From positions 124,001-188,000 of the forward strand of contig CAJNDS010002848.1 in NCBI GenBank assembly GCA_905221605.1: a stretch of 64,000 nucleotides of DNA, read 5' to 3'. This document shows positions 1 to 45,288 of this stretch, piece after piece. The notes beneath the pieces were generated by a model. It searched no databases and was not told the origin of the DNA. It saw nothing but the letters and a program-made list of their open reading frames with translations. The stretch comes from Symbiodinium natans (lineage: Eukaryota > Sar > Dinophyceae > Suessiales > Symbiodiniaceae). Numbering within the stretch: position 1 is the stretch's first letter; each line of letters opens with the position of its first letter. The position numbers were made by a program, and so were the translations under genes.

Positions 1-2
1 CA

Positions 3-2599
3 GTGCGCGGTGACGGATCGGTCGTGACCTGGGGTAATCCGGGCGCAGGTGGTGACAGCTCCTCCGTCCAGGGCGTGCTTAAGAATGTCCGACACATCCA
101 AGCATCGAGTCACGCGTTCGCCGCCACTCTGGCAGACGGCTCCGTTGTGACTTTGGTGTGCACTGGGCAGATCTAGGTCGTCTTGAAAGACGATATAAAA
201 CCACAATCGACCCGAGACCCTGCTTCTGCTCCCTTTCCTGTTAAGGTGACGTGGGGCAATGGGCGGTGCGGTGGCGACAGCAGCTCTGTGCAGGGGAAGC
301 TGGTTGGGGTGCAGCGCATCTGGGCATCCAAGCTGGCCTTTGCCGCCCTCACCAGCAACTTGGGGGCCATGGTAGAGGGGCTTTTTTGAGGGTACTCAAG
401 ACTGTGACCCCTAAACGGCCCCACCAGGCCCCGGCAAGCCCCAATCCATCCACTCCTAAAATTGCCCCAAAGATCCCAAAGCGACATAAACATCTATAAG
501 CCCGAAACTCCCCGAACTCCAAAGCCTGACAGTCCCCAACGCCACAGGCGAGTCTCTGGTCACCTGGGGCAGTTTCGATGCAGGCGGGGACTGCAGCGCC
601 GCCGCAGCGGAGCTGGCGCAAGGCGCGCCCTGCCTTGGGGCTTTTGAGGGTTGTTAGCTTTTCCTGCAAGAGATGCATCGGTTTAGGCCGGCAGTCTTGA
701 GCCGATAGGGTCTTCCAGTGCTAGAGGATGGTAGAGGATTGAAAGGGAGACTCCAGCGATCTAGCAGCCTTGGTACCTTCCGACTGTGAAACTTTGCTTG
801 TCGTCCTTGTGGCATGCAGAGTCCACGCTGCAGACTTTAGACTCCGGGCGACGTCCCTCCAAGTCCAGAGCTCCCTGCACCCCCAAACAGGGTTAGGGGT
901 GTTGCGGGTTGTTGAAGGCAGTTGAGAGTTTACGCTGACTCACGAAGCCTCCACATCCTTACCCGACTCTACCAGCAAGGAAGAAGACCCTGAACACCCT
1001 GAACACCCTGAACACCCCCAACACCGTGAAGACAGTGAAAGACACTGAAAGACCCTGAAAGCTGACTTCAGGCGTACGGCAGGTCGCCGCTTCTGAGCTC
1101 GCCTTCGGGGCCGTGCTCCTGGATGGCTCGGTGGTGACATGGGGCGATAGTGACTATGGTGGAGACAGCAGTGGCCTGTTAGGTCTGGATATTTTTTTTT
1201 TGATCTTTACGGTCGAAAGCAGGACAGAGGCCCACCCCGAACTCGAAAGAACCTTCAAGTCGACGAAGCCGAGGGAGGGTTTCTTTAAGGCTCCCCAGCC
1301 ACCTCAGGCGCCGTGCGGCACCAGCTGCAGTCGGTTCGGGAGCTGCGGGCATCGCAAGGCGCTACCTGAGGGCTCGGCTTGCAGAGTGGTTTTGAGCTCT
1401 CAGTCATCTCGGGGCTGTGGGGTTCAAGACTAAGGGCTGGGGGGTTTCTGGAGATTGGAGTTTTTTTTGAGAGCACTGGTTGTCATTGAATCATTATGCG
1501 GAGATGCCTCTGCCTGCCAAGAAGCTGGAGGCCTTCGCAACCGGTCCCGAAGCACCGAGGTCAAAATCTTCAAAGTGGACCCCCGCAAGGCGCCAAACCC
1601 CGCAACCGGTCCCTCTCGAAGCACCAAGGCGCCTTTGCTGCCCTCCGTTCGGACGGTTCCGTGGTCACCTGGGGATGCTCGGCACTGACTAAACCTTCTC
1701 TCCGCACCTTTTAACTTCAAGAACACACCAAAAACACACAAAAACACAAGAAGCCAAGGCAAGGAGAGCTACGGGGCGCACAGCGGCACCGTCCAGGAGC
1801 CGCCTCGGGTTTCAGCGAAGCGAGATTTTCAGGGCTTCACTAGTGTTTCAATTACCGTGCGTTCAGACACCTCCGTGCCTCCAGGTCACATGTCGGCTTC
1901 AGAAAGGTTTTTTCAGCTCCAGGCCTCCAGGCCTCCAGTCCCACACCCCACACCCCACACCCCACACCCCACACCCCACACCCCACACCCCACACCCCAC
2001 ACCCCACACCCCACTGGCCGAAACTAAGCCCGAAGCCCCCCCTGATCCCTCAGCTGCAAGCTTGCAAGCTTCTTCCTAAGCTTGCTGCAGGAGCAGCTGA
2101 AAGATGTCCTGGATGTGCAGGCGTCAGAGGTGCGGGCACGTTGTGTTCACAGGTCAAAAGCCTCCGGGGGTGAGGGTTGCATGGGGGTATATTCGGGGGC
2201 AGTAGGCTGCATGCCTTCAAGACCCGCTTGGGCGGCTCCAACTCTTCGAGCTTGGTTTGATGAGCCGCCGTAATCTGCAGTGGGCTTCTTTGGACCCTTT
2301 TCGGGATGAGAGACTTGGATTTGTTCCTCAAAGGATCCAAGTAAGGCAGGAAGCCCAAAGGGTCTACGTAAGGCCAATCCCCCCCCCGCCCCCTTTCCCT
2401 TCCGAAGCCCGAGCATTGAACCTCCCTGGAGTCGGCTTTTGCGGCCATCCTTGCCGATGGCTCCGTGGTCGCTTGGGGGAACGAGCGTGCGGGAGGTGCT
2501 CGGGATTTTCACACCTGCACTTCGCAGTGGCGTCGAAACATGCAACCCCTTCTTCCAAGCCCTCATGTATGTACATATAGACATGTACACATGTATATA

Positions 2600-2630
<31 letters not shown>

Positions 2631-5534
2631 GTTCATACAAGGTTCTCATTCCAGTCCTGGTCGGCGTGGATTCTTTATCATTTGGGGTCATGGGTCCCTT
2701 TCTGCTAAAGGCTTAGGAGGGTTTGGTGCTTCGGGGCTTTTGCCGGACAAAGCCCAGACTGGACCCGAACCCGTGAGCCCGAGACATGGAGGCAACTGCT
2801 CGTCAGTGCAACACCTGCTGGTGGACACGCAGGAGCGGTTGGCTTTAGGCTTCGGGTTTTTGGGTTTAGGATTGAGTCGAGTGTGGAGGAATTTGTTTTT
2901 GTGCTTTGCAACTTCAAAATCGAATCCACTGCCCTTACAACTCAGGCATGAAGGCTCATTTTTTCCAAATCCGCACCACCCCCTCGCCCCGCAGACGCTT
3001 AGATGCCCCGAATCAACTTGGCCGTGGCCTCCCTCCAGAATTTCGCCGAGAGTCTGCGTGCCCTGCGCCCCATCCATCAGTACGCCATGAAGCAAACAAG
3101 GTGACAGCAACATCCACCCCCATGCGCTCAGTGGTTAAATTGTTTTGGAGCCTCGTTTCCCCTGCTCGGAGAACTCAAGAGCCTCCTGAATTTCCGAACA
3201 AGGAATAGGTCACTCTGACCCCGAACTCCAGCTTCGTGTTCTTATCTGCCCGGTTTACGGTAAATGCCATGTGGATCAGGGAGTATTGCTGAGGAGAGAA
3301 TCTTCCGATTCTTACAGTCTGCAGTTGGTTCAGATGGGTGTCCGGGGACTGTAGGGCTGTAAGCTGTTCTGTTCTGAGGTAACAGGTTGAGCGTGGCGGC
3401 CGAATCAAGAAGTGCCTCCCAAAAGAGCAGGAGCTCTGCGCCTCCTTGGGTGCCTTCGCCGCGCGGCGCCGCGACGGCTCCGTGGTCAGCTGGGGCAATG
3501 CTCTCTTCGGTGGCGACAGCAGCGCTGTGCAGGCCAAAGGGCATATTCCATGACCTGCATTATGTATTGTGTATTATGATGTAGTATGATGCAATGTGAT
3601 GTATTCTGATGTATTCTGATGTATTATGATGTATTATGATGTAATATGGTGTATGACGATGTAATATGATGAATTTTTAAATAAAATGATGTATTATGAT
3701 GTACTATGATGCATCATGATGTATTATGATGCATTTTGATGTATTATGATGTATTATGTACTCGGTATTCTGCCTCATGCATTATGTATTATGTACTATG
3801 TATTGTGTATTGCGTATTATGTATTATGTATTATGCATTATGTACAATGTATTATGTATATGTCTGCCTTCACATATACACATGTAGACATCCTCCACCT
3901 GTGTCCTACATATATGTAGCCTTCCTTTTGTTCAACGTCCAAGGCAAGGTCCAAGGTCCAGGGTCCAAGGTCCAAGGTGCAAGGTCCGAGGTCCAAGGTC
4001 CAAGGTCCAAGGGCCAAGGTCCAAGGTCCAAGGTGCAAGGTGCAAGGTCCAAGGTCCAAGGTCCAAAATGTTTGCGAACACTTGCAGCGTACTCGAAAGC
4101 CCCGTGCATGTGACGCATGCCGATCTAAGCTGTGGACAGCTTTGTTCGCTTGATTGCGCTGTTCTTGTGCTGCTTGCGTGGCTGTGGGCGATTTTATTTG
4201 GCATTTCTTGTGGCGAAGCTGGGCAAAAGCGGTGTCCTGCAGCTTTCTGCCGTGGTTTGCTCGGCTGCTGAACTTCAGCTAGCTGTGCTGGTCTTCCTCG
4301 TCCTGCTCCCCTTGGTTGTTTGACTCTAAGAAGCTTGCTGGGGACAGGCGTCGGGCGTTGGCCTTGTCATCTTCTGCCTCGCCAGCGTCAGCTTTGTGTG
4401 TAGTGGAGGGCAGGAGTAACAAGCGTGCTAGAATTGTGGCTTCATGCCTCCCGGACTGCCGCAAAGGTTATGAGAGCTTGCGGGGTGAGGAAGATTCGCG
4501 CATACGCGTGGTGCGGCGCACCTGTCGGTGGTTATTCCAGTTGCGCTGCCCTCGGGCAAGGCGGTGTTGGAGATGAGATGACATTTACTGGGATGTGAAA
4601 GCACTGCTTGGGCCCGCTGGGCCTTTGCAGTGAGTTGTGTGCCTGCGCTGAAAAGTCACCGTGCGGACTTCTTTAGGGTTCTTCAGGTCTAAGGATCCAA
4701 GGCCCGAAGCCCAATCCACCTGACAGTCTTGGATCTTGGATTCTTAGCCTGAAAGCTCTCTAACCTTGAATCCCTAGCCGAAAGCCCCCAAGACTAAACC
4801 CCAAGCTGTACACGCCAAAACCGTACAAGCCCTGCAAACCACTTAACAAGTCCCATAAACCCTACATACCCTACATAAACAACCCCAAATGCCCTAAAAA
4901 CCCTTTTTAAGTCCCATCAGCGCTATAAGCCCCTATAAACGCCTATACTTCCCATACACGCCGAGAAAAGCCCTATATAAACGCCTATCAAGGCCCTCTA
5001 TTGAACGCCCCAGTTGGTGAGGCCTCCTTACGCGACGTGCGTCGGCTCCACGCCTCGGGCCACGCCTTCGCGGCGATGCGGGAAGATGGCTCGGCCGCCC
5101 GGCGCAACGCCTCGCACTCCTGGGGGATCCGTTGACAACCTTAGGAGGCGCGATGTGGCCTGGTACACGCGGCCCTGACATACGTACCCCCAGATCCCTC
5201 AGAACCCATTGAAAACTGAATCCTGCCAAAAACATACAGGCCCGTGTACATGTAGAGTAGAGGTGTGGAGAACCGCAGGATGGCAAGCTTCAGGTAATCC
5301 AAGATCGGGGGGGCAACCAGTGCGGGAGCCAAGTAGAATGGTTTCCAATATTCCGTCCTCGTAGTCTTTATATACATGCTTGTTGATACTTATTGATACT
5401 TATTGTGCAGACTACCCCAGTTTGAATCAGTTAGGCCGCTCTGTTCGGGTTTGGCTTAGGTGGTGACCTGGGGGAATGCGGCCTATGGTGGTGACAGCGG
5501 TGCGGTGAAATCTGCACTGCGCTCTGTCGCCTGA
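3..5534 (+). CDS. RCC1-like ('VVTWG') repeat protein, 3' part, 13 exons
   Basis: The gene enters from the left edge. Reconstructed exons: 3-146, 246-354, 548-622, 1072-1173, 1308-1358, 1629-1673, 1764-1796, 2091-2129, 2432-2495, 2792-2832, 3431-3532, 5022-5103 and 5460-5534 (TGA at 5532). Spliced in phase they give eight tandem units of about 41 residues of the form DGSVVTWG-x(5)-GGDSS-x-VQ-x-QLKNV-x-x-IQAS-x-x-AFAA. Such repeats are common in dinoflagellates and are usually auto-annotated as RCC1/HERC/UVR8-like. RCC1 repeats form beta-propellers used in protein interaction, but units of about 41 residues are shorter than classical RCC1 blades, so the fold is inferred. Intron donors read GT (3), GC (6) and GA (3); all acceptors are AG. 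Introns fall at different points of the unit. Exon 12 has a degenerate end (GC donor at 5104). The last exon could instead end at a GC donor at 5529, so the stop is likely rather than certain. Exon phase and repeat continuity make the gene itself secure. Confidence 0.85.
1942..2013. repeat. ACACCCC heptamer microsatellite
   Basis: About ten tandem copies of the 7-mer ACACCCC, inside the intron between RCC1-like exons 7 and 8. It keeps one frame open as a His-Thr-Pro run, which is not coding. Confidence 0.9.
2570..2632. repeat. ATAC/TA-rich microsatellite
   Basis: TATA/ATAC-rich simple repeat with about eight consecutive ATAC units near its centre. It lies in the intron between RCC1-like exons 9 and 10. 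Confidence 0.8.
3562..3870. repeat. Degenerate TATGATGTAT and TATTATGT arrays
   Basis: A degenerate 10-mer array (TATGATGTAT-like) up to about 3770 passes into an 8-mer array (TATTATGT-like). Both are in the 1.5-kb intron between RCC1-like exons 11 and 12. Confidence 0.85.
3942..4068. repeat. CCAAGGT heptamer minisatellite
   Basis: About 18 copies of the 7-mer CCAAGGT with few substitutions (CCAAGGG, GCAAGGT, CCGAGGT). The array is open in several frames (LGPWTLD-type peptides on the minus strand), which I treat as an artefact of the period. Confidence 0.9.
4080..5010. other. Intron interior without recognised coding
   Basis: Rest of the intron between RCC1-like exons 11 and 12. From about 4790 to 5000 it is dense in CCTA-TAAAC/ACCCTA-like strings resembling degenerate telomeric repeat. 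No exon matching the repeat consensus is visible. Confidence 0.5.
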
Positions 5535-6462
5535 AGCTCATGGTGCGTGGTGAACGGGGCTTGGGGGGTGAGGATCATTGCGGTGAGCAGGCACGAGCGG
5601 AGTCAGGGTTCGGATGGAAAACCGTGTTTCACGCTTCCGTATAAGAAGATTCATCGCCCAGTGTACATATTCAGAATGGTGACGCGACCTTCGTTTCCGC
5701 CGATATTTTGAAGCGCAGAGGTCAAGCGCAAGGGGATCGAGGTTGACAGAGCTCCTGCGAAAGCACCGAACTTAACCCAGAGGTTAACCCACCACTCCTG
5801 AACAAAAGCCAAGCAAAAGCGCCCCGAAACCCTAAAGCCCACACAGCCTTTCAGCTGTGGCCCCTCAAAACTCTCCACCCCTGGTAGTTTTGAACACGGT
5901 TTAAAATGGGTTCGGAGGGTTGAGGTCTTGTTGTCTTTCTTAATGGATGTGTGGGTTTTTGTCTGGGTGAAATCTTGGGGTGCACAGGCCTTAAGGGTTC
6001 TAGGTCGCAGGCGCATGATGCAGATTCTCTATCATTTTCTTCTAACATTGACTAAACCCTCAACTGTTCCTGGCCAACCTCGTGAATTAGGTACTGCTCG
6101 AAAAGGGCAGAAGGCACATGGAGGGGAAAGAAAGACCGCAGGATTCGCTTTTGCTTGAGAGGCCACATGGGGTTATTGTACTCCCCCGTTCAGGGTTTTG
6201 GTTCTTCCCCTTTTTCTTGTTGGGTGCGCGGGGGGGGGGGGGAGGGGTTTTAGGTTTCAGGGCTTTGTGCCGGACCACGGCAAGTTAGTCTCAGGAGCTC
6301 GCGCCCTGCTCTCTTGCTGTCCAGCCAGATACCTGCTCAGGGGCTTTGGAAACGCAATGGGTACTTGATGACAACAACCCCTGAACCTGAAGGCTTTGAG
6401 GAGAACAGACGAATTGGTTCTTGGCATAGACCTTGACTTGGAAAGGCTTGGAGCAGCTGAAG
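5535..6462. other. Intergenic or FabD 5' region, nothing recognised
   Basis: Lies between the RCC1-like stop and the first recognised FabD exon. The N-terminal FabD exons (the PGQG motif and SQPA region) should be upstream of 6463, but I could not find them here. The stretch contains a G-run at 6230-6244 and TTTAGGG-like motifs. Confidence 0.4.
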
Positions 6463-9400
6463 CTTGAGAACCCTGCGGCAGCCGCCGACTTCACGGCCGC
6501 GGCAGGAGCGCAGAGAGAGAGAGAGAGACTGAAACAACGTCGAGACTTGATTGAAGGAAAGGTTGACTGGGGGTTTTAGTGATGTGGGCTGGCCGTTTAG
6601 GGTTTGCCGGGTTTTTAGGGTTTTTTGGGCATTTAGGCTCACTTGGGCTCCACTTGGAAGACAGTGTGAAATTGTAAGAGGTGCTGTGAGTGTCCAGGTG
6701 TTGAAGGCCGTAGGGCTTAAGCGGGTTTTGAGGAGCAGGTGTGTCGCAGAGCAGATCTGTGATCGGTCCGTATAATGTTAGGCTTCTTGCTGTTGAGTGG
6801 GAAAGTAAGGGGCCTCTTCATGAAGGAGTCGTCACTCCCCTCGTCACCATTGCAGGCCTTTCCTTGGGTGAGTACACGGCCTTGACAGCGGCTGGAACGC
6901 CCGGGCCTCAGCCGCCAAAGAAACTTCGTGATCCCAAGCTTGGGCCTTTCCCCCTTAAAGCCCTAAACCCCTGGCCACTGGCATCGAAACGGGAACATCG
7001 TAGGGGTCCAGCCCCTCGAGTTCGCGCATTTTTAATGTAAGTTTTTCAGCATGCAGCCCTACACCTTTCAAGATTCTCTCACCCCCTTTCAGGGCCCGCA
7101 CCCTGGGCCCAAGCGCCTTGCTGAAGGTTTGACTTCGCGACTGGCCTCCGCCTCGTCAAGCTGCGGGGTGAAGCCATGCAGGACAACAGGGGGATTAGGC
7201 ACCCGTTGCCGCAGAAGCGATGCGCTTGGGTTTAATGAGCTGGAAGGGACCGGAGAGGCTTTCCGTGACCCTACATGGAACTCCAGACCGAAAAGCCCAA
7301 AGTGCAGGAGGCGACGAAGCTGGGCACGGGTCAGGCGCGCGAGCGCGCTGGTGCTTTGGGACTTATGAGGTTTCTTTCTTTCCTGAGGGGAGGGGGGCGG
7401 CAAGGGCGAGCATCTCCCGTGCCCCTACTGCACCCTGAGAGGGTCTTTCAACAAGCCCTGACACCCTGAAACCTTGGCTCAAGCAACACCGTGCCCCAAG
7501 TCCTTAACTCCAACCCGAATGCCAGGCTATGGCGTCCGTCGCTGGCCTCACGAGGCTCAGCCACGGTGAGCATCTCATTTTCGGTTAGGCGAAGCAGCGC
7601 CGTAGAGTTTGGGGGCTCAAAAGCGGTAGTTGGCTTAGGCTTAGACTCGGCTTAGACCATCGTTGTACAAGTGGGCTAAACTCAGCTACAGCTTGACCTA
7701 AATGCTGGATAGGGTTGGAGAAGTTATGCAGAATGTTTAAATCTGGGGAGCCTGAAGGCTTACCTCTAGAGCTGATGCTGGAGAGCCAGAGTCATCGGCA
7801 CACGGGCTATCATGTGACGAAACGCGAAACGCGAAAGCCCCCCCAAAACTCCCTGAAAACCTAAACCCCTTTCCTGCAACCCTTCTCCACTTCTCCGCCC
7901 TTTCCAAGCTCTGCTTCTCCCCCCAGCCACCTGACTTCGAAACCGCTGTCCCTCCAGACCCTAAGAAACTTCAAAGGAAGTCCTTGAGAACCCCTTCCTG
8001 GGACCCTCAAAGGCCTTAAGCCGTCCTTTACACCAGCAGCTGCCCTTGAAACCAGCAGCTGCCCAAAGTTGACAGGGCGAAGCTGGAGGCGCCTTCGCCG
8101 GGTGAGAGGGAGAACTTTTGGATCCCTTTTGGGCCCCGTTTTGGAATGTGCATGTATATCTACTTGCCTCGCTGAAGAGTAGCCGGATCCTCGTACGTGT
8201 ATTGGGGCAGGGACACTATGCTATGGCAGAGCGAGTGTGTTGCCCACCTCGACCATGTGGGGTTTGGGGTTCCCCGAAGCCAGAGATGAGCTCATGTGAT
8301 CCCCCCACCAGACGCTTTGCCGGGATTGCATCGAGAGCGACGCAGACACCTGCCAGGCGGACTTGGGGATTTGTCTGGACACTTCCTGGTAGCTTTTTTG
8401 GTGTCACGCCTAAGCCAGAATCTGTAAACCGAACGCCAAGCCCCGGAGCCTGTACGTTTTCCGAGAACCACTCCGGAGGCCCTTGCCTTTGCGCCCAAAC
8501 TCCAGGAGTTCTGTCGCCAACAAGATACATACAGAAACACCATAGAACGATTAAATGTGTTCTCAGACTTGCACTAAGCCGTCATGTTGCTCCACAGTAG
8601 CTCTTCTTGGCAGGCTTCGGTGCCTGGGATCAAAGCCAACCCAAGCGATTCCGCAAAGGTGGCAAACTTCCTTTTTCCGAATGGCTTCTCCGTTGCCGGA
8701 ACGGAGCCGGCGGTGCAGCGGTTGGTGGGTCGGGCGGGGGCCCCGCGTCTTCCAGTGCAGTTTCAAACTTGTTGACCTCAGCGGAACCCCCAAATGCTCC
8801 TACACCCTGTAAACTTCACGGCGCTCGAACTGTAAAGCCATGAAAAGCGCCCGAGTGTGAGGCGACGGCCACCACTGGATGCCTCCAAGCCAAGCTGCTC
8901 AAAACCTCGGGTGCCTTCCACACGCGGCGCGGCTTGTGGCTCACTTCGGGGGTCTGGTGTCTTCGCGACCACTTTCGGCGATTGAACCCCCCCCCCCCGC
9001 CCCCTCTCCCCCTAATGATCCCTTATGAGGAGTGCGATTTTTTCGGCTCAGCGGTTTTGGGCCAGGGCTTGGATGTCGCAAGCCGAGGCAGCTCATGCAG
9101 CCAGCGCGCGAGCGGCTCCTGGCGGCACTCCGGGACGCGGAGCCATCCATGCGCTTTGGCGAGCGCTTGCGGTGACTTCTCTGTTGGAGCTTGGTGGAGG
9201 GTGCATCATGGGCCCCCGGCCCCAAACCCCCCCTAAAGCGGTTCTTGAAAATTCTTTGAAAATTGAAGTGGGGAATCTAATCTGATTTAGCAGAGGTCGG
9301 GCTTGCTTCTGCCAGCTAGTTGGTGACTGGGATACGACGACGGTGTCGCAGGGGCCTTAGGACTTGGAACTCCCGAAAACCCCCCCAGGAAGCCGCCCAC

Positions 9401-10544
9401 GCGCGACATCTACGCCAACCTCACCGGTGCAAGGCCTCTGTGCTTGATCTCACCGCGCCTTGCAGTGGCGCTAAAGATTCTAAAGATTCTAAAGATTCTT
9501 GCGGGGTCTTGCTGTGGAGGTCTCCAAACTTCTCTAAGCCTGGGAGCTCCCATTAGCGAGAGGCCTCACGAGGTCGCCCAAGTCCTGAGCAGGCTTCCAG
9601 CCGGCACGCCGGTCCAGGAGATCATTACGAGCTTGGCAGACCAGCTCACAAACTGCACCTCTTAGCTGATTCAGAGGTGCTGTTCGGGTTTTCGGGCTTC
9701 TAGCTCCGCTGCAGGGGGCGTAAGGGCAGGTGGCATAGGAAGTCTAAACTCCCCCCATATCCTGCCCAACACATGTTCCGACTGTGTTTTTTGCCTTCGA
9801 AAGAGCGGCAATCAGAAGTCCTCGATGTGCTGCCGCTTGAGCCGGTTGTGGCAACTAAGGCGTCCTGTGGGAGCCGTGCATGCGTGCTGCTCTGGCAGAC
9901 GGCCTGTCCGAGCACCTTGGGGTCAAGTTATCCATATTCTTGTGTCTCTCTAGTTGGAATTCTTGAAGGAGCCCGCCCCAAGCTCTTAAAAGCCTGAAGG
10001 CGAGGCCCTGAACCAAAAGTGTGGGAGGCCCTAAACCCTAGACCCTTTCTAAATCCGATCCGTGCCTCACATATCTCACATGCCCCCCCCCCCCCCCCCC
10101 CAAACGCCATCGCCCGCAAAAGAACGAAGACGCCTTGCAATTTCGACGCAAAGCTCTCCACCCTTCCGCCCAAGAAGCCCAACCCGAAACCCTGGAGCAG
10201 ATCCGCAGGTTTTACGAGCTGGGCCCCATGAAGCAGCTCAAGTCCATGATGAAGCGCCCCTTGGGCCAAGTAGGAATTTCAGCGGGCAGACTACATGTCA
10301 ACAACTATAAGAGATAATGTCTGGTGTTCGGGGCTCAGGGCTTCTTTTTGCCGGGTGTACGGTGTAGGGTTATCAGCTCTCCAGATCTAGATCGCTCATG
10401 AATCTCCAAAAGTGGGGGGATCCGGGCCAGGGTTCCCCTCCCAACTTCCGAGGCATCGACCAGTCGGCCTGGCAGAAGACCCAGCCGCTGGGCCGGATCA
10501 GCCGTCAGAGCCACACCCGACCGGGAGGTCCATGGGTTACTTGA
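6463..10544 (+). CDS. fabD: Malonyl-CoA:ACP transacylase (FabD/MCAT), N-terminus not found
   Basis: Transfers malonyl from CoA to acyl-carrier protein in type II fatty-acid synthesis, in algae usually in the plastid. Exons: 6463 (or 6469)-6505, 6856-6898, 7127-7181, 7308-7334, 7526-7554, 8076-8088, 8614 to about 8710, about 8890-8926, 9088-9150, 9389-9428, 9573 to about 9657, 10209-10255 and 10453-10544 (TGA). In order they give the nucleophile elbow GLSLGEYTAL (catalytic Ser in GLSLG), GLRLVKLRGEAMQ, QAMASVAGLTRAKLEA, ANFLFPNGFSVAGT, LKTSGAFHTR (catalytic His), LMQPARERLLAAL, IYANLTG, LADQLTNC, FYELGPMKQLKSMMKR and IDQSAW, all in family order. Donors are mainly GC with some GA. The 8076-8088 exon is only 13 bp. 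The junctions after 8614 and after 9573 are unresolved; an exon near 9878-9915 (VLLWQTA) may belong. A targeting peptide cannot be judged. Confidence 0.9.
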
Positions 10545-11230
10545 GCTGAGTAGGCAAAAGGTCTCCTACACTTTTGGTAGCCCTACTCTGGCCCTGCTTG
10601 GGATACCACAAACGCCAGTCGTAAGTGCCCATGAAGCACTCTCGAATGCTCCAAGTCCGTCCAACAACCGTGAAAGCCTCCCGTTTCTCGGGGGGTTCAT
10701 CTGCTCTACTCCCATGACTGAGGAATGTCATGGTTTGAGCACATCGCAAGCAGATTTGCTGCCAGCGGCTTGGCGGGCTTCGCTGACTTTTCAATGGCAG
10801 ATGAATCGAACTACAGTTACCATTTGGCTGGCTTGCTTGGAAGACGTTGGTTCAGTGGCAGCCCTCGGAGGCTGCTTCATGTTGCCGTGCCTTTGTTTGT
10901 TCCTTTTTCGTTCTCTGAGGGCCTTGGCCTAAAAAACTGGATTTGCGTTCATCACCCGTCGGACAGTGATTTCACAGAGGTAGAGACGAGACTCAGTCAC
11001 AGATTTCAGATTTGGTCTGCTTCCTTCACGAACATCTCCCTGAGCCTTCAACACATGCTTGCCGTTCGGCTTGTCTTGTCTAGCCGGGCCAACCCCTGCG
11101 AGAGCAACGAACAAGAAGATACAAGAAGTAGGCAACCCAAAATTATGCCGAAAACCCAGCCGAGGCTCGCCGCTTAGATGCTCTTCCCGGATGGCAGCAA
11201 AAAGCGCTGGGTCTAAACTTCCCAACCCCA
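10545..11230 (+). other. Unassigned region with one long open frame
   Basis: Downstream of FabD. A 150-codon frame is open at 10725-11177 on the + strand and a second frame overlaps it, so coding is not supported by frame length alone. A short exon-like piece at about 11186-11210 (MLFPDGSKKRW) follows a TTAG and ends before GTCTAA. No family is recognised. Confidence 0.25.
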
Positions 11231-20846: not shown

Positions 20847-20896
20847 TGAGAGAGCCCTTTCGGGTCTATTTTGCGTATCCTCTTGCTTGCCTTCTA

Positions 20897-23037
20897 TTTA
20901 ATTAATTTAATTAATTTAATTAATTTAATTAATTGAATTAATTGAATTAATTGAATTAATTGAATTAATTGAATTAATTGAATTAATTGAATTAATTGAA
21001 TTAATCGAAATCAACAAATTTCTTTTGCGAATTCAATTAATTCAATTAATTGAATTAATTTAATTAATTTAATTAATTCAAATAATTGAATTCGAAAAAC
21101 CTCTTTCGCTAATTCAATTAATTCAATTAATTCAATTAATTGGATTAATTGAATTAATTGAATTCGAAAAGCCTCTTTCGCTAATTCAATTAATTCAAAT
21201 TCAATTTCAATTAATTCAATTAATTCAATTCAATTAATTCATTAATTCAATAATTCAATAATTCAAATTAATTCAATTAATTCATTAATTCAATTATCTA
21301 TTTTTTTTTTTTTAAACAAAGATTTTTCCCCCTATTGAATTAATTATTTCAATTAATTCAATTAATTCAATAATTCAATTTGAATTAACTGAATTAATTG
21401 AATTCGAAAAGGCTCCTTCGCTAATTCAATTAATTCAATTAATTCAATTAATTGAATTAATTGAATTAATTGAATTAATTGAATTAATTGAATTAATTCA
21501 ATTAATTCAATACGCGGGAAATCCGGATTTCGATTAGGGAACCCCACATAATTGAATTAATTGAATTAATTGAATTCGAAAAACCTCTTTCGCTAATTCA
21601 ATTAATTCAATTAATTCAATTAGTTGGATTAATTGAATTAATTGAATTCGAAAAAGCCTCTTTCGCTAATTCAATTATTTCAATTAATTCAATTATCTAT
21701 TTCTTTTTTCAAAACAAAGATTTCCCCTCTATTGAATTAATTCAATTAATTCAATTAATTCAATTAATTGAATTAATTGAATTAATTGAATTCGAAAAGC
21801 CTCCTTCGCTAATTCAATTAATTCAATTAATTCAATTAATTGAATTAATTGAATTAATTGAATTAATTGAAATTGAATTAATTGAATTAATTCAATACGC
21901 GGGAAATCCGGATTTCGATTAGGGAACCCCACATAATTGAATTAATTGAATTAATTGAATTCGAAAAACCTCTTTCGCTAATTCAATTAATTCAATTAAT
22001 TCAATTAATTCAATTAATTCAATTAATTGGATTAATTGAATTAATTGAATTCGAAAAAGCTTCTTTCGCTAATTCAATTAATTCAATTAATTCAATTAAT
22101 TCAATTAATTCAATTATCTATTTCTTTTTTCAAAACAAAGATTTTCCCCTCTATTGAATTAATTCAATTAATTCAATTAATTCAATTAATTCAATTAATT
22201 GAATTAATTCAATTATTCAATGAATTGAATTAATTCATTAATTCAAGTAATCTCATTAATTCAATTATTCAATTAATTCAATTAATTCCATTAATTCAAT
22301 TAATTCAATTAATTGAATTCTTGAATTAATTGAATCGAAAGCCTCCTTCGCTATTGAATTAATTCAATTAATTGAATTAATTGAATTAAATTAATTGAAT
22401 TAATTGAATTAATTGAATTAATTCAATACGCGGGAAATCCGGATTTCGATTAGAGAACCCCACATAATTGAATTAATTGAATTAATTGAATTCGAAAAAC
22501 CTCTTTCGCTAATTCAATTAATTCAATTAATTCAATTAATTGGATTAATTGAATTAATTGAATTCGAAAAGCCTCTTTCGCTAATTCAATTAATTCAATT
22601 AATTCAATTATCTGAATTTTTTCAAAACAAAGATTAATTGAATTTGAATTAATTCAATTAATTCAATTAATTCAATTAATTCAATTAATTCAATTAATTC
22701 AATTAATTCAATTAATTCAATTAATTCAATTAATTCAATTAATTGAATTAATTGAATTAATTCAATTCGAAAAGCCTCCTTCGCTAATTCAATTAATTCA
22801 ATTAATTCAATTAATTGAATTAATTGAATTAATTGAATTAATTGAATTAATTGAGTTAATTGAATTAATTCAATACGCGGGAAATCCGGATTTCGATTAG
22901 GGAACCCCACATAATTGAATTAATTGAATTAATTGAATTCGAAAAACCTCTTTCGCTAATTCAATTAATTCAATTAATTCAATTAATTGGATTAATTGAA
23001 TTAATTGAATTAATTAGATTAATTAAATTAATTAAAG
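20897..23037. repeat. AT satellite of GAATTAATT 9-mers in both orientations with higher-order units
   Basis: The basic 9-mer GAATTAATT and its reverse complement AATTAATTC occur in alternating blocks, so many block pairs are inverted repeats able to form hairpins. Two spacer classes recur: GAATTCGAAAAA-CCTCTTTCGC-type and AATACGCGG-GAAATCCGGATTTC-GATTAGGG-type. The latter begins near 21508, 21893, 22424 and 22871 (spacing about 385, 531 and 447 bp) and holds a perfect 14-bp palindrome, GAAATCCGGATTTC. Long frames here (IELIQLIQL peptides) are products of the period, not genes. Confidence 0.95.
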
Positions 23038-23040
23038 GGT

Positions 23041-23427
23041 CCATAATCTGAGTTATCATGATTATGATAACTTTAGGTTCCCAAACTTGAGTTATCATGA
23101 TTATGATAACCTTAGGTTCCCAAACCTGAGTCATCATAATTATGATAACTTTAAGGTCCCCAGTCTGAGTTATCATGATTATGATAACCTTAGGTTCCCA
23201 AGCCTGAGTTATCATAATTATGATAACTTTAGGTTCCCAAACCTGAGTTATCATGATTATGATAACCTTAGGTTCCCAAACCTGAGTTATCATAATTATG
23301 ATAACTTTAGGTTCCCAAACCTGAGTTATCATAATTATGATAACTTTAGAGTCACCAACTGGAGTTATCATAATTATGATAACTCCTTAGGGTCCCACCC
23401 CTGAGTTATCATAATCATGATAACTTT
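23041..23427. repeat. 39-bp tandem repeat with a 20-22-bp palindrome
   Basis: About ten units of about 39 bp. Each carries GTTATCATAATTATGATAAC or the T-to-G variant GTTATCATGATTATGATAAC, followed by a spacer of about 17 bp like TTAGGTTCCCAAACCTG (itself partly palindromic, GGTT-CCC-AAACC). Every unit can form a hairpin. Confidence 0.95.
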
Positions 23428-23504
23428 TAATTCGCAGCTTCACCTTAAGAGAGAGGTGCGCGAATAGGGGGGTGTAATATCAAGCGATTGTGTGCTACAA
23501 TATG

Positions 23505-24935
23505 GAGTAGGGATCAGGGCTTGCGATTTGACTCTTTGGAGCAAAAATTAAACCCAAAAACTTAGGGACCAGGGCTTGCGATTTGACTCTTTGGAGCAAA
23601 AAATGAACCCAAAACCTTAGGGGCCAGGGCTTGCGATTTGACTCTTTTGAGCAAAACATGAACCCAAAATCTCAGGGACCAGGGCTTGCGATTTGACATT
23701 TTGGAGCAAAAACTGGTCCCAAAATCTTAGGGACCAGGGCTTGCGATGCTACTCTTTGGAGCAAAAAATGCGGCCAAAATCTTAAGGACCAGGGCTTGCG
23801 ATTTGACTCTTTGGAGCAAAAACTGGGCCCCAAATCTTAGGGACCAGGGCTTGCGATTTGACTCTTTGGAGCAAAAATTAAACCCAAAATCTTAGGGACC
23901 AGGGCTTGCGATGCTACTCTTTGGAGCAAAAAATGCGCCCAAAATCTTAAGGACCAGGGCTTGCGATTTGATTCTTTGTAGCAAAAACTGAGCCCCAAAT
24001 CTTAGGGACCAGGGCTTGCGATTTGACTCTTTGGAGCAAAAATCAAACCCAAAATCTTAGGGACCAGGGCTTGCGATTTGACTCTTTTGAGCAGAACATG
24101 AACCCAAACTCTCAGGGATTGCGATTTGACATTTTGGAGCAAAAACTGGGCCCAAAATCTTAGGGACCAGGGCTTGCGATGCTACTCTTTGGAGCAAAAA
24201 AAGCGCCCAAAATCTTAAGGACCAGGGCTTGCGATTTGACTCTTTGGAGCAAAAACTGGGCCCCAAATCTTAGGGACCAGGGCTTGCGATTTGACTCTTT
24301 GGAGCAAAAATTAAACCCAAAATCTTAGGGACCAGGGCTTGCGATGCTACTCTTTGGAGCAAAAAATGCGCCCAAAATCTTAAGGACCAGGGCTTGCGAT
24401 TTGATTCTTTGGAGCAAAAACTGAGCCCCAAATCTTAGAGACCAGGGCTTGCGATTTGACTCTTTGGAGCAAAAACTGAGCCCAAAATCTTAGGGACCAG
24501 GGCTTGCGATTTGACTCTTTGGAGCAAAAACTGGGCCCAAGATCTTAGGGACCAGGGCTTGCGATGTCACTCTTTGGAGCAAAAAATGAACCCAAAATCT
24601 TAGGGACCAGGGCTTGCGATTTGACCTTTTGGAGCAAAAACTGTGCCCAAAATCTTAGGGACCAGGGCTTGCGATTTGACTCTTTGGAGCAAAAAATGAA
24701 CCCAAAAACTTAGGGACCAGGGCTTGCGATTTGACTCTTTGGAGCAAAAAATGAACCCAAAATCTTAGGGGCCAGGGCTTGCGATTTGACCTTTTGGAGC
24801 AAAAACTGGGCCCAAAATCTTATGGACCAGGGCTTGCGATGCTACTCTTTGGAGCAAAAAATGCGCCCAAAATCTTAAGGACCAGGGCTTGCGATTTGAC
24901 TCTTTGGAGCAAAAACTGGTCCCCAAATCTTAGGG
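23505..24935 (+). repeat. 55-bp satellite, block 1 (forward)
   Basis: About 26 tandem units of roughly 55-56 bp, each beginning GGGACCAGGGCTTGCGATTT and continuing GACTCTTTGGAGCAAAAA. Variants differ at the GATTTGAC/GATGCTAC and AACTGGGC/AAATGCGC positions in alternating patterns, implying multi-unit amplification. Confidence 0.95.
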
Positions 24936-25868
24936 CCCAGTTTTTGCTCCAAAGAGTCAAATCGCAAGCCCTGGTCCCTAAGATTTGGGGTTTGGTTTTT
25001 GCTCCAAAGAGTCAAATCGCAAGCCCTGGTCCCTAATATTTGGGGCACAGTTTTTGCTCCAAAGAGTCAAATCGCAAGCCCTGGTCCTTAAGATTTTGGG
25101 CGCATTTTTTGCTCCAAAGAGTAGCATCGCAAGATCTTGGGCCCAGTTTTTGCTCCAAAAGGTCAAATCGCAAGCACTGGTCCCTGAGAGTTTGGGTTCA
25201 TGTTTTGCTCAAAAGAGTTAAATCGCAAGCCCTGGTCCCTAAGATTTTGGGTTTAATTTTTGCTCCAAAGAGTCAAATCGCAAGCCCTGGTCCCTAAGAT
25301 TTGGGGCTCAGTTTTTGCTCCAAACAGTCAAATCGCAAGCCCTGGTCCTTAAGATTTTGGGCGCAGTTTTTGCTCCAAAGAGTAGCGTCGCAAGCCCTGG
25401 TCCCTAAGATTTTGGGCGCATTTTTGGCTCCAAAGAGTAGCATCGCAAAATTTTGGGCCCAGTTTTTGCTCCAAAAGGTCAAATCGCAAGCACTGGTCCC
25501 TGAGAGTTTGGGTTCATGTTTTGCTCAAAAGAGTTAAATCGCAAGCCCTGGTCCCTAAGATTTTGGGTGTAATTTTTGCTCCACAGAGTCAAATCGCAAG
25601 CCCTGGTCCCTAAGATTTGGGGCTCAGTTTTTGCTCCAAAGAGTCAAATCGCAAGCCCTGGTCCTTAAGATTTTGGGCGCAGTTTTTGCTCCAAAGAGTA
25701 GCATCGCAAGCCCTGGTCCAATTTTTGCTCCAAAGAGTCAAATCGCAAGCCCTGGTCCCTAAGATTTGGGGCCCAGTTTTTGCTCCAAAGAGTCAAATCG
25801 CAAGCCCTGGTCCCTAAGATTTTGGGTTTAATTTTTGCTCCAAAGAGTCAAATCGCAAGCCCTGATCC
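24936..25868 (-). repeat. 55-bp satellite, block 2 (inverted)
   Basis: About 17 units of the same 55-bp repeat, reverse-complemented. The switch at about 24935 is head-to-head around a shared GGGCCCAGTTTTTGC segment. Together with block 1 this makes an inverted repeat of over 900 bp. Confidence 0.95.
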
Positions 25869-26050
25869 CAAGATCTTAGGGACCAGGGCTTGCGATGTCA
25901 CTCTTTGGAGCAAAAAATGAACCCAAAATCTTAAGGACCAGGGCTTGCGATTTAACTCTTTTGAGCAAAACATGAACCCAAACTCTCAGGGACCAGGGCT
26001 TGTGATTCCACTCTTTCGAGCAAAACATAAGCTACAAATCTCAGGGACTA
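25869..26050 (+). repeat. 55-bp satellite, block 3 (forward)
   Basis: Three forward units. The second orientation switch is at CCCAAGATCTTAGGGA (about 25867-25882), around a short palindrome. Confidence 0.9.
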
Positions 26051-26575
26051 GGGCTCGAGAATTGCAAAGGACCGCCGCGATACTCCAACGACGTGCTCTT
26101 CGATTTGGAGGAGACAGGCGACTTGAACTACACATACGCTACGCTTGTACATTAACTTGCAGTGTTCACACGGATTCATCATCAACGCGACATTTGCACG
26201 AAGCAGAATACAATTACACCACAGCTGTTTAGCATCGTAGAGACTCCGAACCTGTCACCGCGTCCACCGAAGAATGGCGAAGGTTTCCCGCGAGGCTCTT
26301 GTCCAACGACACAACGCAAGCCCTGGTCCCTAAGATTTTGGGCCCAGTTTTTACTCCAAAGAGTCAAATCGCAAGCCCTGGTCCCTAAGATTTTGGGTTT
26401 AATGATTGCTCCAAAGGGTCAATTCGCAAGCCCTGGTCCCTAAGATTTTGGGCCCATTTTTTGCTCCAGAGAGCATCTGCTGCTGTTAAGGTTGCAAAAA
26501 ACTCCAACGACTTCGCAAACTTGAACGACTTTGCAATGCTTCTCGATGAGAGCAATCACTACCTAAAGCCCTCCT
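26051..26575 (+). CDS. Exon-like fragments embedded in the satellite
   Basis: Non-repeat islands at about 26051-26312 and 26469-26575 interrupt the 55-bp satellite. Three protein-like readings occur: about 26091-26155 (RYSNDVLFDLEETGDLNYTY, then a stop), about 26228-26315 (FSIVETPNLSPRPPKNGEGF), and about 26471-26572 (SAAVKVAKNSNDFANLNDF, AMLLDESNHYLKPS). Codon use is less GC-rich than in the FabD or RCC1-like exons. They could be exons of a gene whose introns are filled with satellite, or captured fragments. No family is recognised. Confidence 0.4.
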
Positions 26576-27095
26576 GGTCCCTAAGATTTTGGGCCCAGTT
26601 TTTGCTCCAAAGAGTCACATCGCAAGCCCTGGTCCCTAAGATTTTGGGTTCAATTTTTGCTCCAAAGAGTAACATCGCAAGCCTGGTCCCTAAGATTCTG
26701 GGCTCATTTTTTGCGCCAAAGAGTAAAATCCCTAAGATTTTGGGGTCAATTTTTGCTCCAAAGAGGCCAATGGCAAGCCCTGGTCCCTAAGATTTCGGGG
26801 TCGATCTGTGCGCCACAGAGTCAAAGCGCAAGCCCTGGTCCCTAAGATTTCGGGGTCGATTTGTGCTCCACGGAGTCACATCGCAAGCCCTGGTCCCTAA
26901 GATTTTGGGCCCAGTTTTTGCCCCAAAAGGTGAAATCGCAAGCCCTGGTCCCTAAGATTTTGGGCTCATTTCTTGCTCCAAAGAGTAACATCGCAAGCCC
27001 TGGTCCCCAAGATTTTGGAATCGATTTTGCTCCAAAGAGTCAGATCGCAAGCCCTGGTCCCTAAAATGTTGGGCTCAATTTTTGCCTTTCCCTTG
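26310..27095 (-). repeat. 55-bp satellite, block 4 (inverted)
   Basis: Reverse-orientation units at about 26313-26468 and 26576-27095, split by the exon-like island at 26469-26575. Includes truncated units (GTAAAATCCCTAAGATT at about 26725) also present in the downstream duplicate. Confidence 0.9.
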
Positions 27096-27097
27096 TC

Positions 27098-27351
27098 TTC
27101 TTCTGCTTCCTTTGAACTGATAAAACACAAGAAAGGAACTCATATGATAAAGCAGTGGAAGGGAAAGGGGGGTGACTCCCTGCGCGTGGACCTTTCTCCT
27201 CCTCTCCGGCCTATCTCTTCTGTTCCTTTCCTCACCCTTCTCCTTCTCATAGTTCTTCCTTTTTGTTTTTCTCATTTCGAAAAGAAAGAGGGAAGGGAGA
27301 AACAAGGGAGAGAGAATAGATAACGAAGAGTGCCATCTTCTTTGCGTCTTG

Positions 27352-27394
<43 letters not shown>

Positions 27395-27636
27395 ATTCAT
27401 CTGTCTTCTATTCTTTTCTTTGCTCTTCCCATTAACAATGCAATCCTTGGTGTATCTCCTCTCTCCTTCTCTCTTCCTGCAACAGATGTCCTTTTGGATC
27501 GTTTTCTGCATCTTCAAGCGAGAAAAAAGGACACCCAAAAGAAAACACTGAGGGTGTCCCTTTGCTCGTTTGAAGACACAGAAGATTGAAAGGGACGCCC
27601 ATGTTGGATTGGCTGCAAACCCAGCTGATGCTCATG

Positions 27637-27735
<99 letters not shown>
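27098..27735. repeat. TC-rich module, copy 1, with (CT)n tracts
   Basis: Pyrimidine-rich module beginning TTTCCCTTGTCTTCTTCTGC, with conserved AAACACAAGAAAGGAACTCA and AAGCAGTGGAAGGG segments and (CT)n tracts at about 27358-27390 and 27639-27733. Open frames in it (ERERER/SLSLSL) are repeat artefacts. Confidence 0.9.
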
Positions 27736-29260
27736 GTCCCTAAGATTTTGGGTTCATTTTTTGCTCCACAGAGTGACATCGCAAGCCCTGGTCCCTAAGA
27801 TCTTGAGCCCAGTTTTTGCTCCAAAGAGTCAAATCGCAAGCCCTGGCCCCTAAGATCTTGGGGTCGATTTGTGCTCCAAACAGTCAAATCGCAAGCCCTG
27901 GTCCCTAAGATTTTGGGCCCAGCTTTTGCTCCAAAGAGTAACATCGCAAGCCCTTGTCCCTAAGATTTTGGGCACAGTTTTTGCAGAGTCAAATCGCAAG
28001 CCCTGGTCCCTAAAATTTTGGTCATGTTTTGCTCCAAAGAGTGACATCGCAAGCCCTGGTCCCTAAGATCTTGGGCCCAGTTTTTGCTCCAAAGAGTCAA
28101 ATCCAAGGCCTGGTCCCTAAGATTTTGGGTTCAAATTTTGCTCCGAAGAGTCAAATCGCAAGCCCTGGTCCCTAAGATTTGGGGCCCAGTTTTTGGTCCC
28201 TAAGATTCTGGGTTCATTTTTTGCTCCAAAGAGAGTGACATCGCAAGCCCTGGTCCCTAAGATCTTGGGCCCAGTTTTTGCTCCAAAGAGTCAAATCGCA
28301 AGCCCTGGTCCCTAAGATTTTGGGTTTAATTTTTGCTCCAAAGAGTCAAATCGCAAGCCCTGGTCCCTAAGATTTTGGGCCCAGTTTTTGCTCCAAAGAG
28401 TCAAATCGCAAGCCCTGGTCCTTAAGATGTTGGGCGCATTTTTTGCTCCAAAGAGTAGCGTCGCAAGCCCTGGTCCCTAAGATTTTGGGCCCAGTTTTTG
28501 CCAAAAGGTCAAATCGCAAGCCCTGGTCCCTAAGATTTTGGCTTCAATTTTTGCTCGAAAGAGTAACATCGCAAGCCCTGGTCCCCAAGAATTTTGGGCC
28601 CAGTTTTTGCTCCAAAGAGTCAAATCGCAAGCCCTGGTCCCTAAGTTTTTGGGCCCATTTTTTTCTCCAAAGAGTCAAATCGCAAGCCCTGGTCCTTAAG
28701 ATTTTGGGTTCATTTTTTGCTCCAAAGAGTAGCGTCGCAAGCCCTGGTCCCTAAGATTTTGGGCCCAGTTTTTGCTCCAAAGAGTCACATCGCAAGCCCT
28801 GGTCCCTAAGATTTTGGGTTCAATTTTTGCTCCAAAGAGTAACGTCGCAAGCCTGGTCCCTAAGATTCTGGGCTCATTTTTTGCGCCAAAGAGTAAAATC
28901 CCTAAGATTTTGGGTCAGTTTTTGCTCCAAAGAGGCCAATGGCAAGCCCTGGTCCCTAAGATTTCGGGGTCGATCTGTGCGCCACAGAGTCAAAGTGCAA
29001 GCCCTGGTCCCTAAGATTTCGGGGTCGATTTGTGCTCCACGGAGTCAAATCGCAAGCCCTGGTCCCTAAAATTTTGGGCCCAGTTTTTGCCCCAAAAGGT
29101 GAAATCGCAAGCCCTGCTCCCTAAGATTTTGGGCTCATTGCTTGCTCCAAAGGGTAACATCGCAAGCCCTGGTCCCCAAGATTTTGGAATCGATTTTTGC
29201 TCCAAAGAGTCAGATCGCAAGCCCTGGTCCCTAAAATGTTGGGCTCAATTTTTGCCTTTC
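27736..29260 (-). repeat. 55-bp satellite, block 5 (inverted)
   Basis: About 27 inverted units. The part from about 28750 repeats the unit order of block 4 from about 26579 including the same truncations, showing a tandem segmental duplication with a period of about 2.17 kb. Confidence 0.9.

Positions 29261-44879: not shown

Positions 44880-45288
<409 letters not shown>

What the first reader, a model, noticed from the sequence alone, without database searches (positions are those of the whole stretch)
147..5459. GC and GA intron donors dominate, with direct repeats at the two intron ends
In the RCC1-like gene, where the repeat consensus fixes every junction, twelve introns start GT (3), GC (6) or GA (3) and end AG. 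Both boundaries usually share a string: CAGGAGC at 1794/2088 and again at 2830/3428, CAAGGCGC at 1355/1625, GTGAC at 147/246. FabD and DUF1244 junctions show the same AG|GC or AG|GA pattern. With such repeats the intron edges can be slid without changing the mRNA, as expected of introns inserted with target-site duplication (introner-like).
Basis: partly seen in the sequence, partly recalled or inferred. Interest (0 to 1): 0.75.

Follow-up and report, generated by a model that had tools for sequence, protein, structure and literature searches.

The report
Transposon-born introns with inherited GC/GA donors
In this dinoflagellate alga many introns look like small mobile DNA pieces that duplicated four exon bases when they landed, the first copy becoming the odd GC, GA or GT start of the intron; the same thing is already described in a related alga, so this is a clear new instance rather than a new kind.

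Summary
Partly confirmed. The RCC1-like gene (window 3-5534, +) has 12 introns modelled with AG ends, and GT donors are a minority in every reading. Eight junctions are fixed by the 41-residue repeat; introns 2, 3, 4 and 6 are not, so donors are GT 3, GC 6, GA 3 (three units one residue off) or GT 4, GA 4, GC 3, GG 1 (no indels). Boundary repeats exceed cross-paired introns in every reading (p 2e-4 to 1e-3). I then tested 99 introns in Hsp70, glutamate synthase and CPSase genes of the same 759-Mb dinoflagellate genome: GC 52, GA 25, GT 21, GG 1. Intron base +2 equals exon base +2 after the acceptor in 55 (29.1 expected, p<1e-4). Matches of 4 or more bases from the donor G occur in 10 (2.5 expected), of 5 or more in 1. 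Two CPSase paralogs show introns present in one copy only, four with a perfect 4-bp duplication. So these introns look like introner insertions, with the donor copied from the target exon; the AG in the strings is splice consensus. U1 and U6 look canonical. This matches published Symbiodinium microadriaticum introners (PMC9860276). No RNA was available.

The parts
3..5534 (+). RCC1-like repeat gene, 3' part: 13 exons and 12 introns in the window, stop codon 5532-5534; repeat exons continue upstream of the window edge
   Evidence: Pfam RCC1_2 at 21.6 bits, just under its cut-off of 22
147..245 (+). intron 1, donor GT, boundary repeat GTGAC, CTTTGG at +5
355..547 (+). intron 2, donor GC, repeat GC, CTTGGG at +5 (unit one residue short); gap-free alternative 363-552 has donor GG
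623..1071 (+). intron 3, donor GC, repeat AGGCG (unit one residue long); gap-free alternative 610-1061 has donor GA
1174..1307 (+). intron 4, donor GC, repeat GGC (unit one residue long); gap-free alternative 1171-1307 has donor GT
1359..1628 (+). intron 5, donor GC, repeat CAAGGCGC (4-bp duplication GCGC)
1674..1758 (+). intron 6, donor GA, CTCGGC at +5 and GCCAAG at the end; alternative 1682-1766 with donor GC
1797..2090 (+). intron 7, donor GA, repeat CAGGAGC (4-bp duplication GAGC)
2130..2431 (+). intron 8, donor GT, repeat GAG; acceptor followed by T
2496..2791 (+). intron 9, donor GT, repeat GGAGG
2833..3430 (+). intron 10, donor GA, repeat GCAGGAGC (4-bp duplication GAGC); no other copy among the scored genome candidates
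3533..5021 (+). intron 11, donor GC, repeat AGGCC; contains TGTATTATGA, TATTATG and CAAGGTC tandem arrays
5094..5459 (+). intron 12, donor GC, repeat GG

Best explanation
The introns descend from short DNA transposon-like introners. Shown statistically and at empty sites: insertion makes a 4-bp target-site duplication (TSD) whose first base is G. The upstream copy (GNNN) becomes the first four bases of the intron, the element (in several recent copies with CTTGG-like starts) supplies the AG acceptor, and the downstream copy restarts the exon, so the coding sequence is unchanged. The donor dinucleotide is therefore the first two bases of the exonic target: GT, GC or GA. Inferred: targets starting GG do not survive because GG hardly works as a donor; afterwards intron bases +3 and +4 decay and donors drift towards GC, so old introns keep mainly the +2 match. 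Inferred and untested: splicing is by the ordinary spliceosome, which here tolerates a very weak 5' splice site.
For: RCC1 boundary excess in every reading of the gene. In 99 introns of other genes: +2 match 55 vs 29.1 (p<1e-4); run of 4 or more from +1 in 10 vs 2.5 (p 3e-4), 5 or more in 1 vs 0.6 (p .45). With the 12 RCC1 introns, 111: 63 vs 34.2, 14 vs 3.0, 2 vs 0.8. The +2 excess repeats in 27 CPSase introns collected after the idea was formed: 16 vs 7.0, p 1e-4. Presence/absence between L069 and L070: TSDs GTGG, GAGC, GAAC, GCAC perfect; GCTC/GTTC 3 of 4; GAGC/GAAG 2 of 4; a seventh, at residue 734, reads GACT/GTCT, 3 of 4, by eye. Shared termini: 28 bp at 89% between introns L069:732 and L070:675, 29 bp at 93% inverted between L070:675 and L069:293. 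CTTG begins at +5 in 11 of 99 introns, other offsets at most 5. Exon +2 is G in 3 of 92 acceptors followed by G, against 28% of bases after G in these coding sequences (p 7e-10) or 16% after AGG (p 3e-4). U1 5' end ACTTACCTG (2 of 16 copies read) and U6 ACAGAGA are canonical.
Against: No RNA: all junctions are inferred from protein alignment with a bonus for G at +1 and AG at the end. At +3 and +4 taken singly the excess in the 99 is not significant (30 vs 26.3 and 30 vs 26.0, p .2). Base -3 also matches more than expected (33 vs 25.4, p .04 in 99; 40 vs 29.0, p .009 in 111), which a pure 4-bp duplication does not predict. In CPSase alone the run of 4 is 2 of 27 vs 0.5, p .09. Two older presence/absence introns between Hsp70 paralogs L056 and L059 match only in GC. 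Terminal inverted repeats are not detectable in bulk. A genome pattern of 7-bp CTTGGCT/AGCCAAG ends with G-starting flanks gave 47 rows, of which by eye 7 (4 distinct sequences) have equal 4-bp flanks, about 0.7 expected. Searching the fetched loci for CTTGGGGACC found, outside CPSase, mainly satellites and chance-level hits. RCC1 introns show no repeat family.
Confidence: 0.85

Rival explanations
1. The shared strings are only the splice consensus (AG|G at both sites) and no duplication occurred.
For: AG precedes the donor in 54 of 99 introns and G follows the acceptor in 92 of 99; part of most quoted strings is this consensus.
Against: Cross-pairing keeps the consensus and still gives fewer matches at +2 and for runs of 4; the four perfect recent insertions lie at sites without AG before the donor (CGCA, CTCC, TCGA, GGCT).
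Confidence: 0.05
2. Introns arose by tandem duplication of short exon pieces or by patching of double-strand breaks, leaving repeats of variable length.
For: One Hsp70 copy (L054) has a 70-bp internal duplication that could act as such an intron; the L070 residue-675 intron contains a second copy of the downstream exon start; the L070 residue-734 intron is largely a TTTAGGG array.
Against: Runs of matches stop after 4 bases (10 of 99 reach 4, 1 reaches 5), without the long flanking identity that tandem duplication would leave; some recent introns share termini.
Confidence: 0.08
3. The donors are odd because the spliceosome of this lineage has relaxed its recognition, independently of how introns arose.
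For: +2 is C in 52% and +3 to +6 show no GTAAGT-like consensus in 111 introns.
Against: The U1 and U6 copies read have canonical recognition sequences; the donor base tracks the downstream exon base, which relaxed recognition alone does not predict.
Confidence: 0.15

Closest known systems
Introners of Symbiodinium microadriaticum (Gozashti et al. 2022, PMC9860276, Fig. 2B legend; passages seen)
   Different: There called from repeated families; here the signal is also seen in introns of conserved genes without a detectable family, and inverted repeats are clear in only a few
GC and GA donors with AG|G acceptors in dinoflagellates (PMC4083563; Table 2 of PMC10666404; passages seen)
   Same: Same donor mix: Symbiodinium natans GT 23.6, GC 58, GA 18.4%, AGG acceptors 97.1%; here in 99 introns GT 21, GC 53, GA 25%, AG|G 93%
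   Different: The passages seen count donors; here the donor base is tied to the base of the target exon
Introner elements of Amoebophrya (Farhat et al. 2021, PMC7789003; passages seen)
   Same: Inverted repeats inside the intron ends and 3-5 nt direct repeats at exon/intron borders
   Different: Splice motifs there are far more varied and a U1 component is reported missing; here U1 snRNA genes are present and canonical
Roy et al. 2023 Curr Biol, dinoflagellate introners (not held; known only through passages of the review PMC11453091)
   Same: Dinoflagellate introns attributed to introners
   Different: Could not be read; it may already contain the donor-inheritance result

Membership tests
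Introners (DNA-transposon type) | target-site duplication at intron ends | tested here: met
   10 of 99 introns with 4 or more matching bases vs 2.5, stop at 4; 4 presence/absence introns perfect. For the RCC1 gene: 4 of 12 with 4 or more
Introners (DNA-transposon type) | presence/absence between closely related copies with an empty site | tested here: met
   six CPSase introns between L069 and L070 and a seventh by eye; not found for the RCC1 introns themselves
Introners (DNA-transposon type) | many introns sharing sequence (a family) | tested here: inconclusive
   three CPSase introns share 28-29 bp termini; RCC1 introns gave no copies beyond tandem arrays; glutamate synthase introns hit only telomere-type arrays, 40 of 4800 candidates scored
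Introners (DNA-transposon type) | terminal inverted repeats | tested here: inconclusive
   7 bp in L069:732 and L059:337; no bulk signal; genome pattern 166 vs 17 reversed controls but flanks mostly not duplicated
Introners (DNA-transposon type) | element supplies one splice site, the duplication the other | tested here: met
   in the four perfect cases the inferred donor dinucleotide equals the first two bases after the insertion point of the empty site; RNA not available
Spliceosomal introns | removed from mRNA at the inferred junctions | not testable with these tools
   no transcripts; proteins join in frame

The most novel reading that the evidence does not exclude
The GT/GC/GA donor classes of this lineage are not different splice-site types but fossils of where each intron landed: new introns inherit GT, GC or GA from the exon, GG targets are eliminated, and GT and GA donors then drift to GC. 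Support in 99 introns: donor base equals exon +2 base in 55 (29.1 expected); exon +2 is G in 3 of 92; where exactly one of the two bases is C it is the donor in 31 and the exon in 7 (p 1e-4). Mutation bias or acceptor context could also produce the last two.
Probability: 0.5. Interest if true: 0.55.

Novelty: new member of a known kind. Interest (0 to 1): 0.42.

Why it matters
It ties two known oddities of dinoflagellates, non-GT donors and boundary repeats, to one cause that can be tested base by base. It also sharpens an open question: with canonical-looking U1 and U6, how does the spliceosome find a 5' splice site that is whatever exon sequence the element happened to hit?

Tried and rejected
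Splice-consensus-only reading: rejected by cross-pairing. A 5' G/T-rich to 3' A/C-rich polarity of introns: significant in the 12 RCC1 introns (p .02) but not in 72 others (p .72), so dropped. Bulk terminal inverted repeats: no correlation beyond composition in 84 introns. Genome pattern for 7-bp inverted ends with G-starting flanks: 47 rows, 7 with equal flanks by eye, one cut off by the listing. Family search with six glutamate synthase introns: dominated by telomere-type arrays, 40 of 4800 candidates scored. RCC1-like paralogs as a second intron set: L066-L068 are nearly intronless, 1 usable intron of 4. Other references: E. coli FabD too diverged, aconitase 2 weak hits, GroEL none, SdhA did not complete. 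A low intron penalty over-split FabD and one RCC1 run and was abandoned. Fold energies of seven recent introns are mixed (z -0.2 to -3.7 against single-base shuffles). Telomere-like motifs are spread over the whole window, so not treated as part of the mechanism.

Rows dropped before counts: 122 first-set introns, 83 with good flanking alignment, 72 after removing rows not starting G and ending AG and Hsp70 positions shared by L053 and L054; 84 CPSase introns, 47 with good flanks, 27 after the same filters; 72 + 27 = 99. Four of the six scanned CPSase presence/absence introns failed the flank filter and are not in the 99. In one search (sites matching at least 24 of 30 bases) 12 rows were listed: six CPSase introns, two Hsp70 (L056:152, L059:264), and four rows that are not empty sites (L069 and L070 residue 40, L069 residue 334, L054 residue 23).

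Full report
What is there. The window lies in a 759-Mb unnamed assembly, contig C2536:124001-188000. It is a dinoflagellate: the spliced leader CCGTAGCCATTTTGGCTCAAG sits in one short cluster with U1, U4, U5, U6, 5S and SRP RNA genes. Window 3-5534 (+) is the 3' part of an RCC1-like repeat gene; Pfam RCC1_2 scores 21.6 bits on unspliced frames, just under its cut-off of 22, and the repeat motifs recur in every exon. Paralogs elsewhere carry the same 41-residue unit in long open runs with few or no introns.

Donors and repeats in the gene. Twelve introns with AG ends join the exons in frame. Eight junctions are fixed by the repeat (GT 3, GC 3, GA 2). For introns 2, 3, 4 and 6 more than one reading is possible: with AG|G acceptors the total is GT 3, GC 6, GA 3, with three units of 40, 42 and 42 residues; without indels it is GT 4, GA 4, GC 3, GG 1. 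Units of other lengths occur in the intronless paralogs too, so neither is excluded. In all readings GT is a minority and the boundary repeats exceed cross-paired donors and acceptors (4.58 vs 3.11, p 8e-4; 4.00 vs 2.60, p 2e-4; eight fixed introns 5.38 vs 3.18, p 9e-4). By position the 12 alone are too few: +2 8 vs 4.7 (p .057), -3 7 vs 3.2 (p .03).

Wider test. I wrote a protein-to-genome spliced aligner (saved, first run) with a bonus for G at +1 and AG at the end and none for the second donor base, and aligned E. coli DnaK, GltB and CarB to Hsp70, glutamate synthase and CPSase loci (searches; alignments 60, 65, 70, 102). After the filters given in Tried and rejected 99 introns remain. Donors: GC 52, GA 25, GT 21, GG 1. 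Comparing the base at the same offset from both splice sites with cross-paired introns: +2 55 vs 29.1 (p<1e-4), +3 30 vs 26.3, +4 30 vs 26.0, +5 27 vs 26.1, +6 22 vs 25.8. Runs of at least 4 from +1: 10 vs 2.5 (p 3e-4); at least 5: 1 vs 0.6; at least 6: 0. With the 12 RCC1 introns (111): 63 vs 34.2, 14 vs 3.0, 2 vs 0.8; using the gap-free RCC1 reading instead: 60 vs 33.8, 14 vs 3.0, 2 vs 0.8. The first 84 introns suggested the pattern; the 27 CPSase introns came later and repeat the +2 result (16 vs 7.0, p 1e-4) but not significantly the run of 4 (2 vs 0.5, p .09). Base -3 is also in excess (33 vs 25.4, p .04 in 99), which I cannot explain.

Empty sites. CPSase paralogs L069 (C2123) and L070 (C2424) give six introns present in one and absent in the other. 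L069: GCCGCA|GTGG CTTGGC...AATAAAG|GTGG, empty GCCGCAGTGG; GACTCC|GAGC CTTGGG...CCCCAAG|GAGC, empty GACTCCGAGC; CATCGA|GAAC CTTGGT...CTCCGAG|GAAC, empty CATTGAGAAC. L070: GGGGCT|GCAC CTATAT...GTATAAG|GCAC, empty GGCCTGCAC; plus residue 711 (3 of 4 bases) and 675 (2 of 4). A seventh, L070 residue 734, was missed by the scan because the aligner put the junction three bases off; by eye it reads GAG|GACT...AAG|GTCT against GAGGTCT. Two older cases between Hsp70 paralogs L056 and L059 match only in GC. None of the four perfect cases has AG before the donor. Introns L069:732, L070:675 and L069:293 share 28-29 bp of terminal sequence, partly inverted, so at least a small family is visible.

Mechanism. 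An element inserts with a 4-bp duplication GNNN. The left copy opens the intron, so the donor is exonic sequence; the element brings the AG; the right copy continues the exon. Two further results fit. Exon base +2 after AG|G is G in 3 of 92 against 28% in the coding sequence of 11 of the loci (16% after AGG), as expected if GG targets give poor donors. When exactly one of donor and exon base is C, it is the donor in 31 of 38 (p 1e-4), as if donors drift to GC. Both have other possible causes, such as acceptor context or mutation bias. U1 (ACTTACCTG; 2 of 16 copies read) and U6 (ACAGAGA; one copy read) are canonical, while the donors match CAG|GTAAGT at only 3.8 of 9 bases on average; how such sites are recognised remains open.

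Against and limits. No RCC1 intron was found as a genome-wide family: the stretch with intron 10 and part of 9 hit only the RCC1 exon elsewhere (40 of 104 candidates scored), and the search over 1-10600 returned chiefly tandem arrays (39 of 440 scored). The pattern for inverted ends is enriched (166 vs 17 reversed controls) but mostly without equal flanks. Only three gene types besides RCC1 were sampled.

Known or new. Donor classes and AG|G are published (PMC4083563, PMC10666404, passages seen), as are 4-bp duplications with donor co-option in Symbiodinium microadriaticum (PMC9860276, passages) and direct plus inverted repeats in Amoebophrya (PMC7789003, passages). Roy et al. 2023 is not held. 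The searches of the held library listed no title or abstract start stating that the donor base follows the target base in ordinary introns, but only listings and some passages were seen, so I claim no priority.

Noticed in passing
L039 (G000:C479, about 103.6-106.8 kb) 1-2250: Spliced leader, U1, U4, U5, U6, 5S and SRP RNA genes in one 2.3-kb cluster; the spliced leader recurs in L039-L043 of the same contig. In the two copies read, U1 is preceded 20 nt upstream by CAGGTAAGT, the complement of its own 5' end.
   Followed up: partly
L058 (reverse strand) introns at GltB residues 989 and 1015; L070 intron at residue 734: Introns carrying long telomere-type arrays (CCCTAAA or TTTAGGG); the one at 1015 also has a 5-bp boundary duplication.
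   Followed up: partly
L054 near DnaK residues 23-31: A 70-bp internal duplication absent from the paralog L053; it could be an intron made by tandem duplication or an alternative exon.
   Followed up: no
L062-L068: RCC1-like repeat paralogs with long open frames and few or no introns, in contrast to the 12 introns of the window gene.
   Followed up: partly
window 20896-29255 and 44881-45286: AT-rich 9-bp array, a 55-bp satellite in both orientations, and an almost perfect (GT)203 run.
   Followed up: no
L050 and L051, upstream of the window: The same sequence context recurs every 4 kb or so (L050 2478 and 6465, L051 458 and 4534), suggesting a tandem array.
   Followed up: no
window 4071-4482, inside intron 11: About 76% identical to one other place, G000:C746:852949-853300; fetched as L052 but not analysed.
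   Followed up: no
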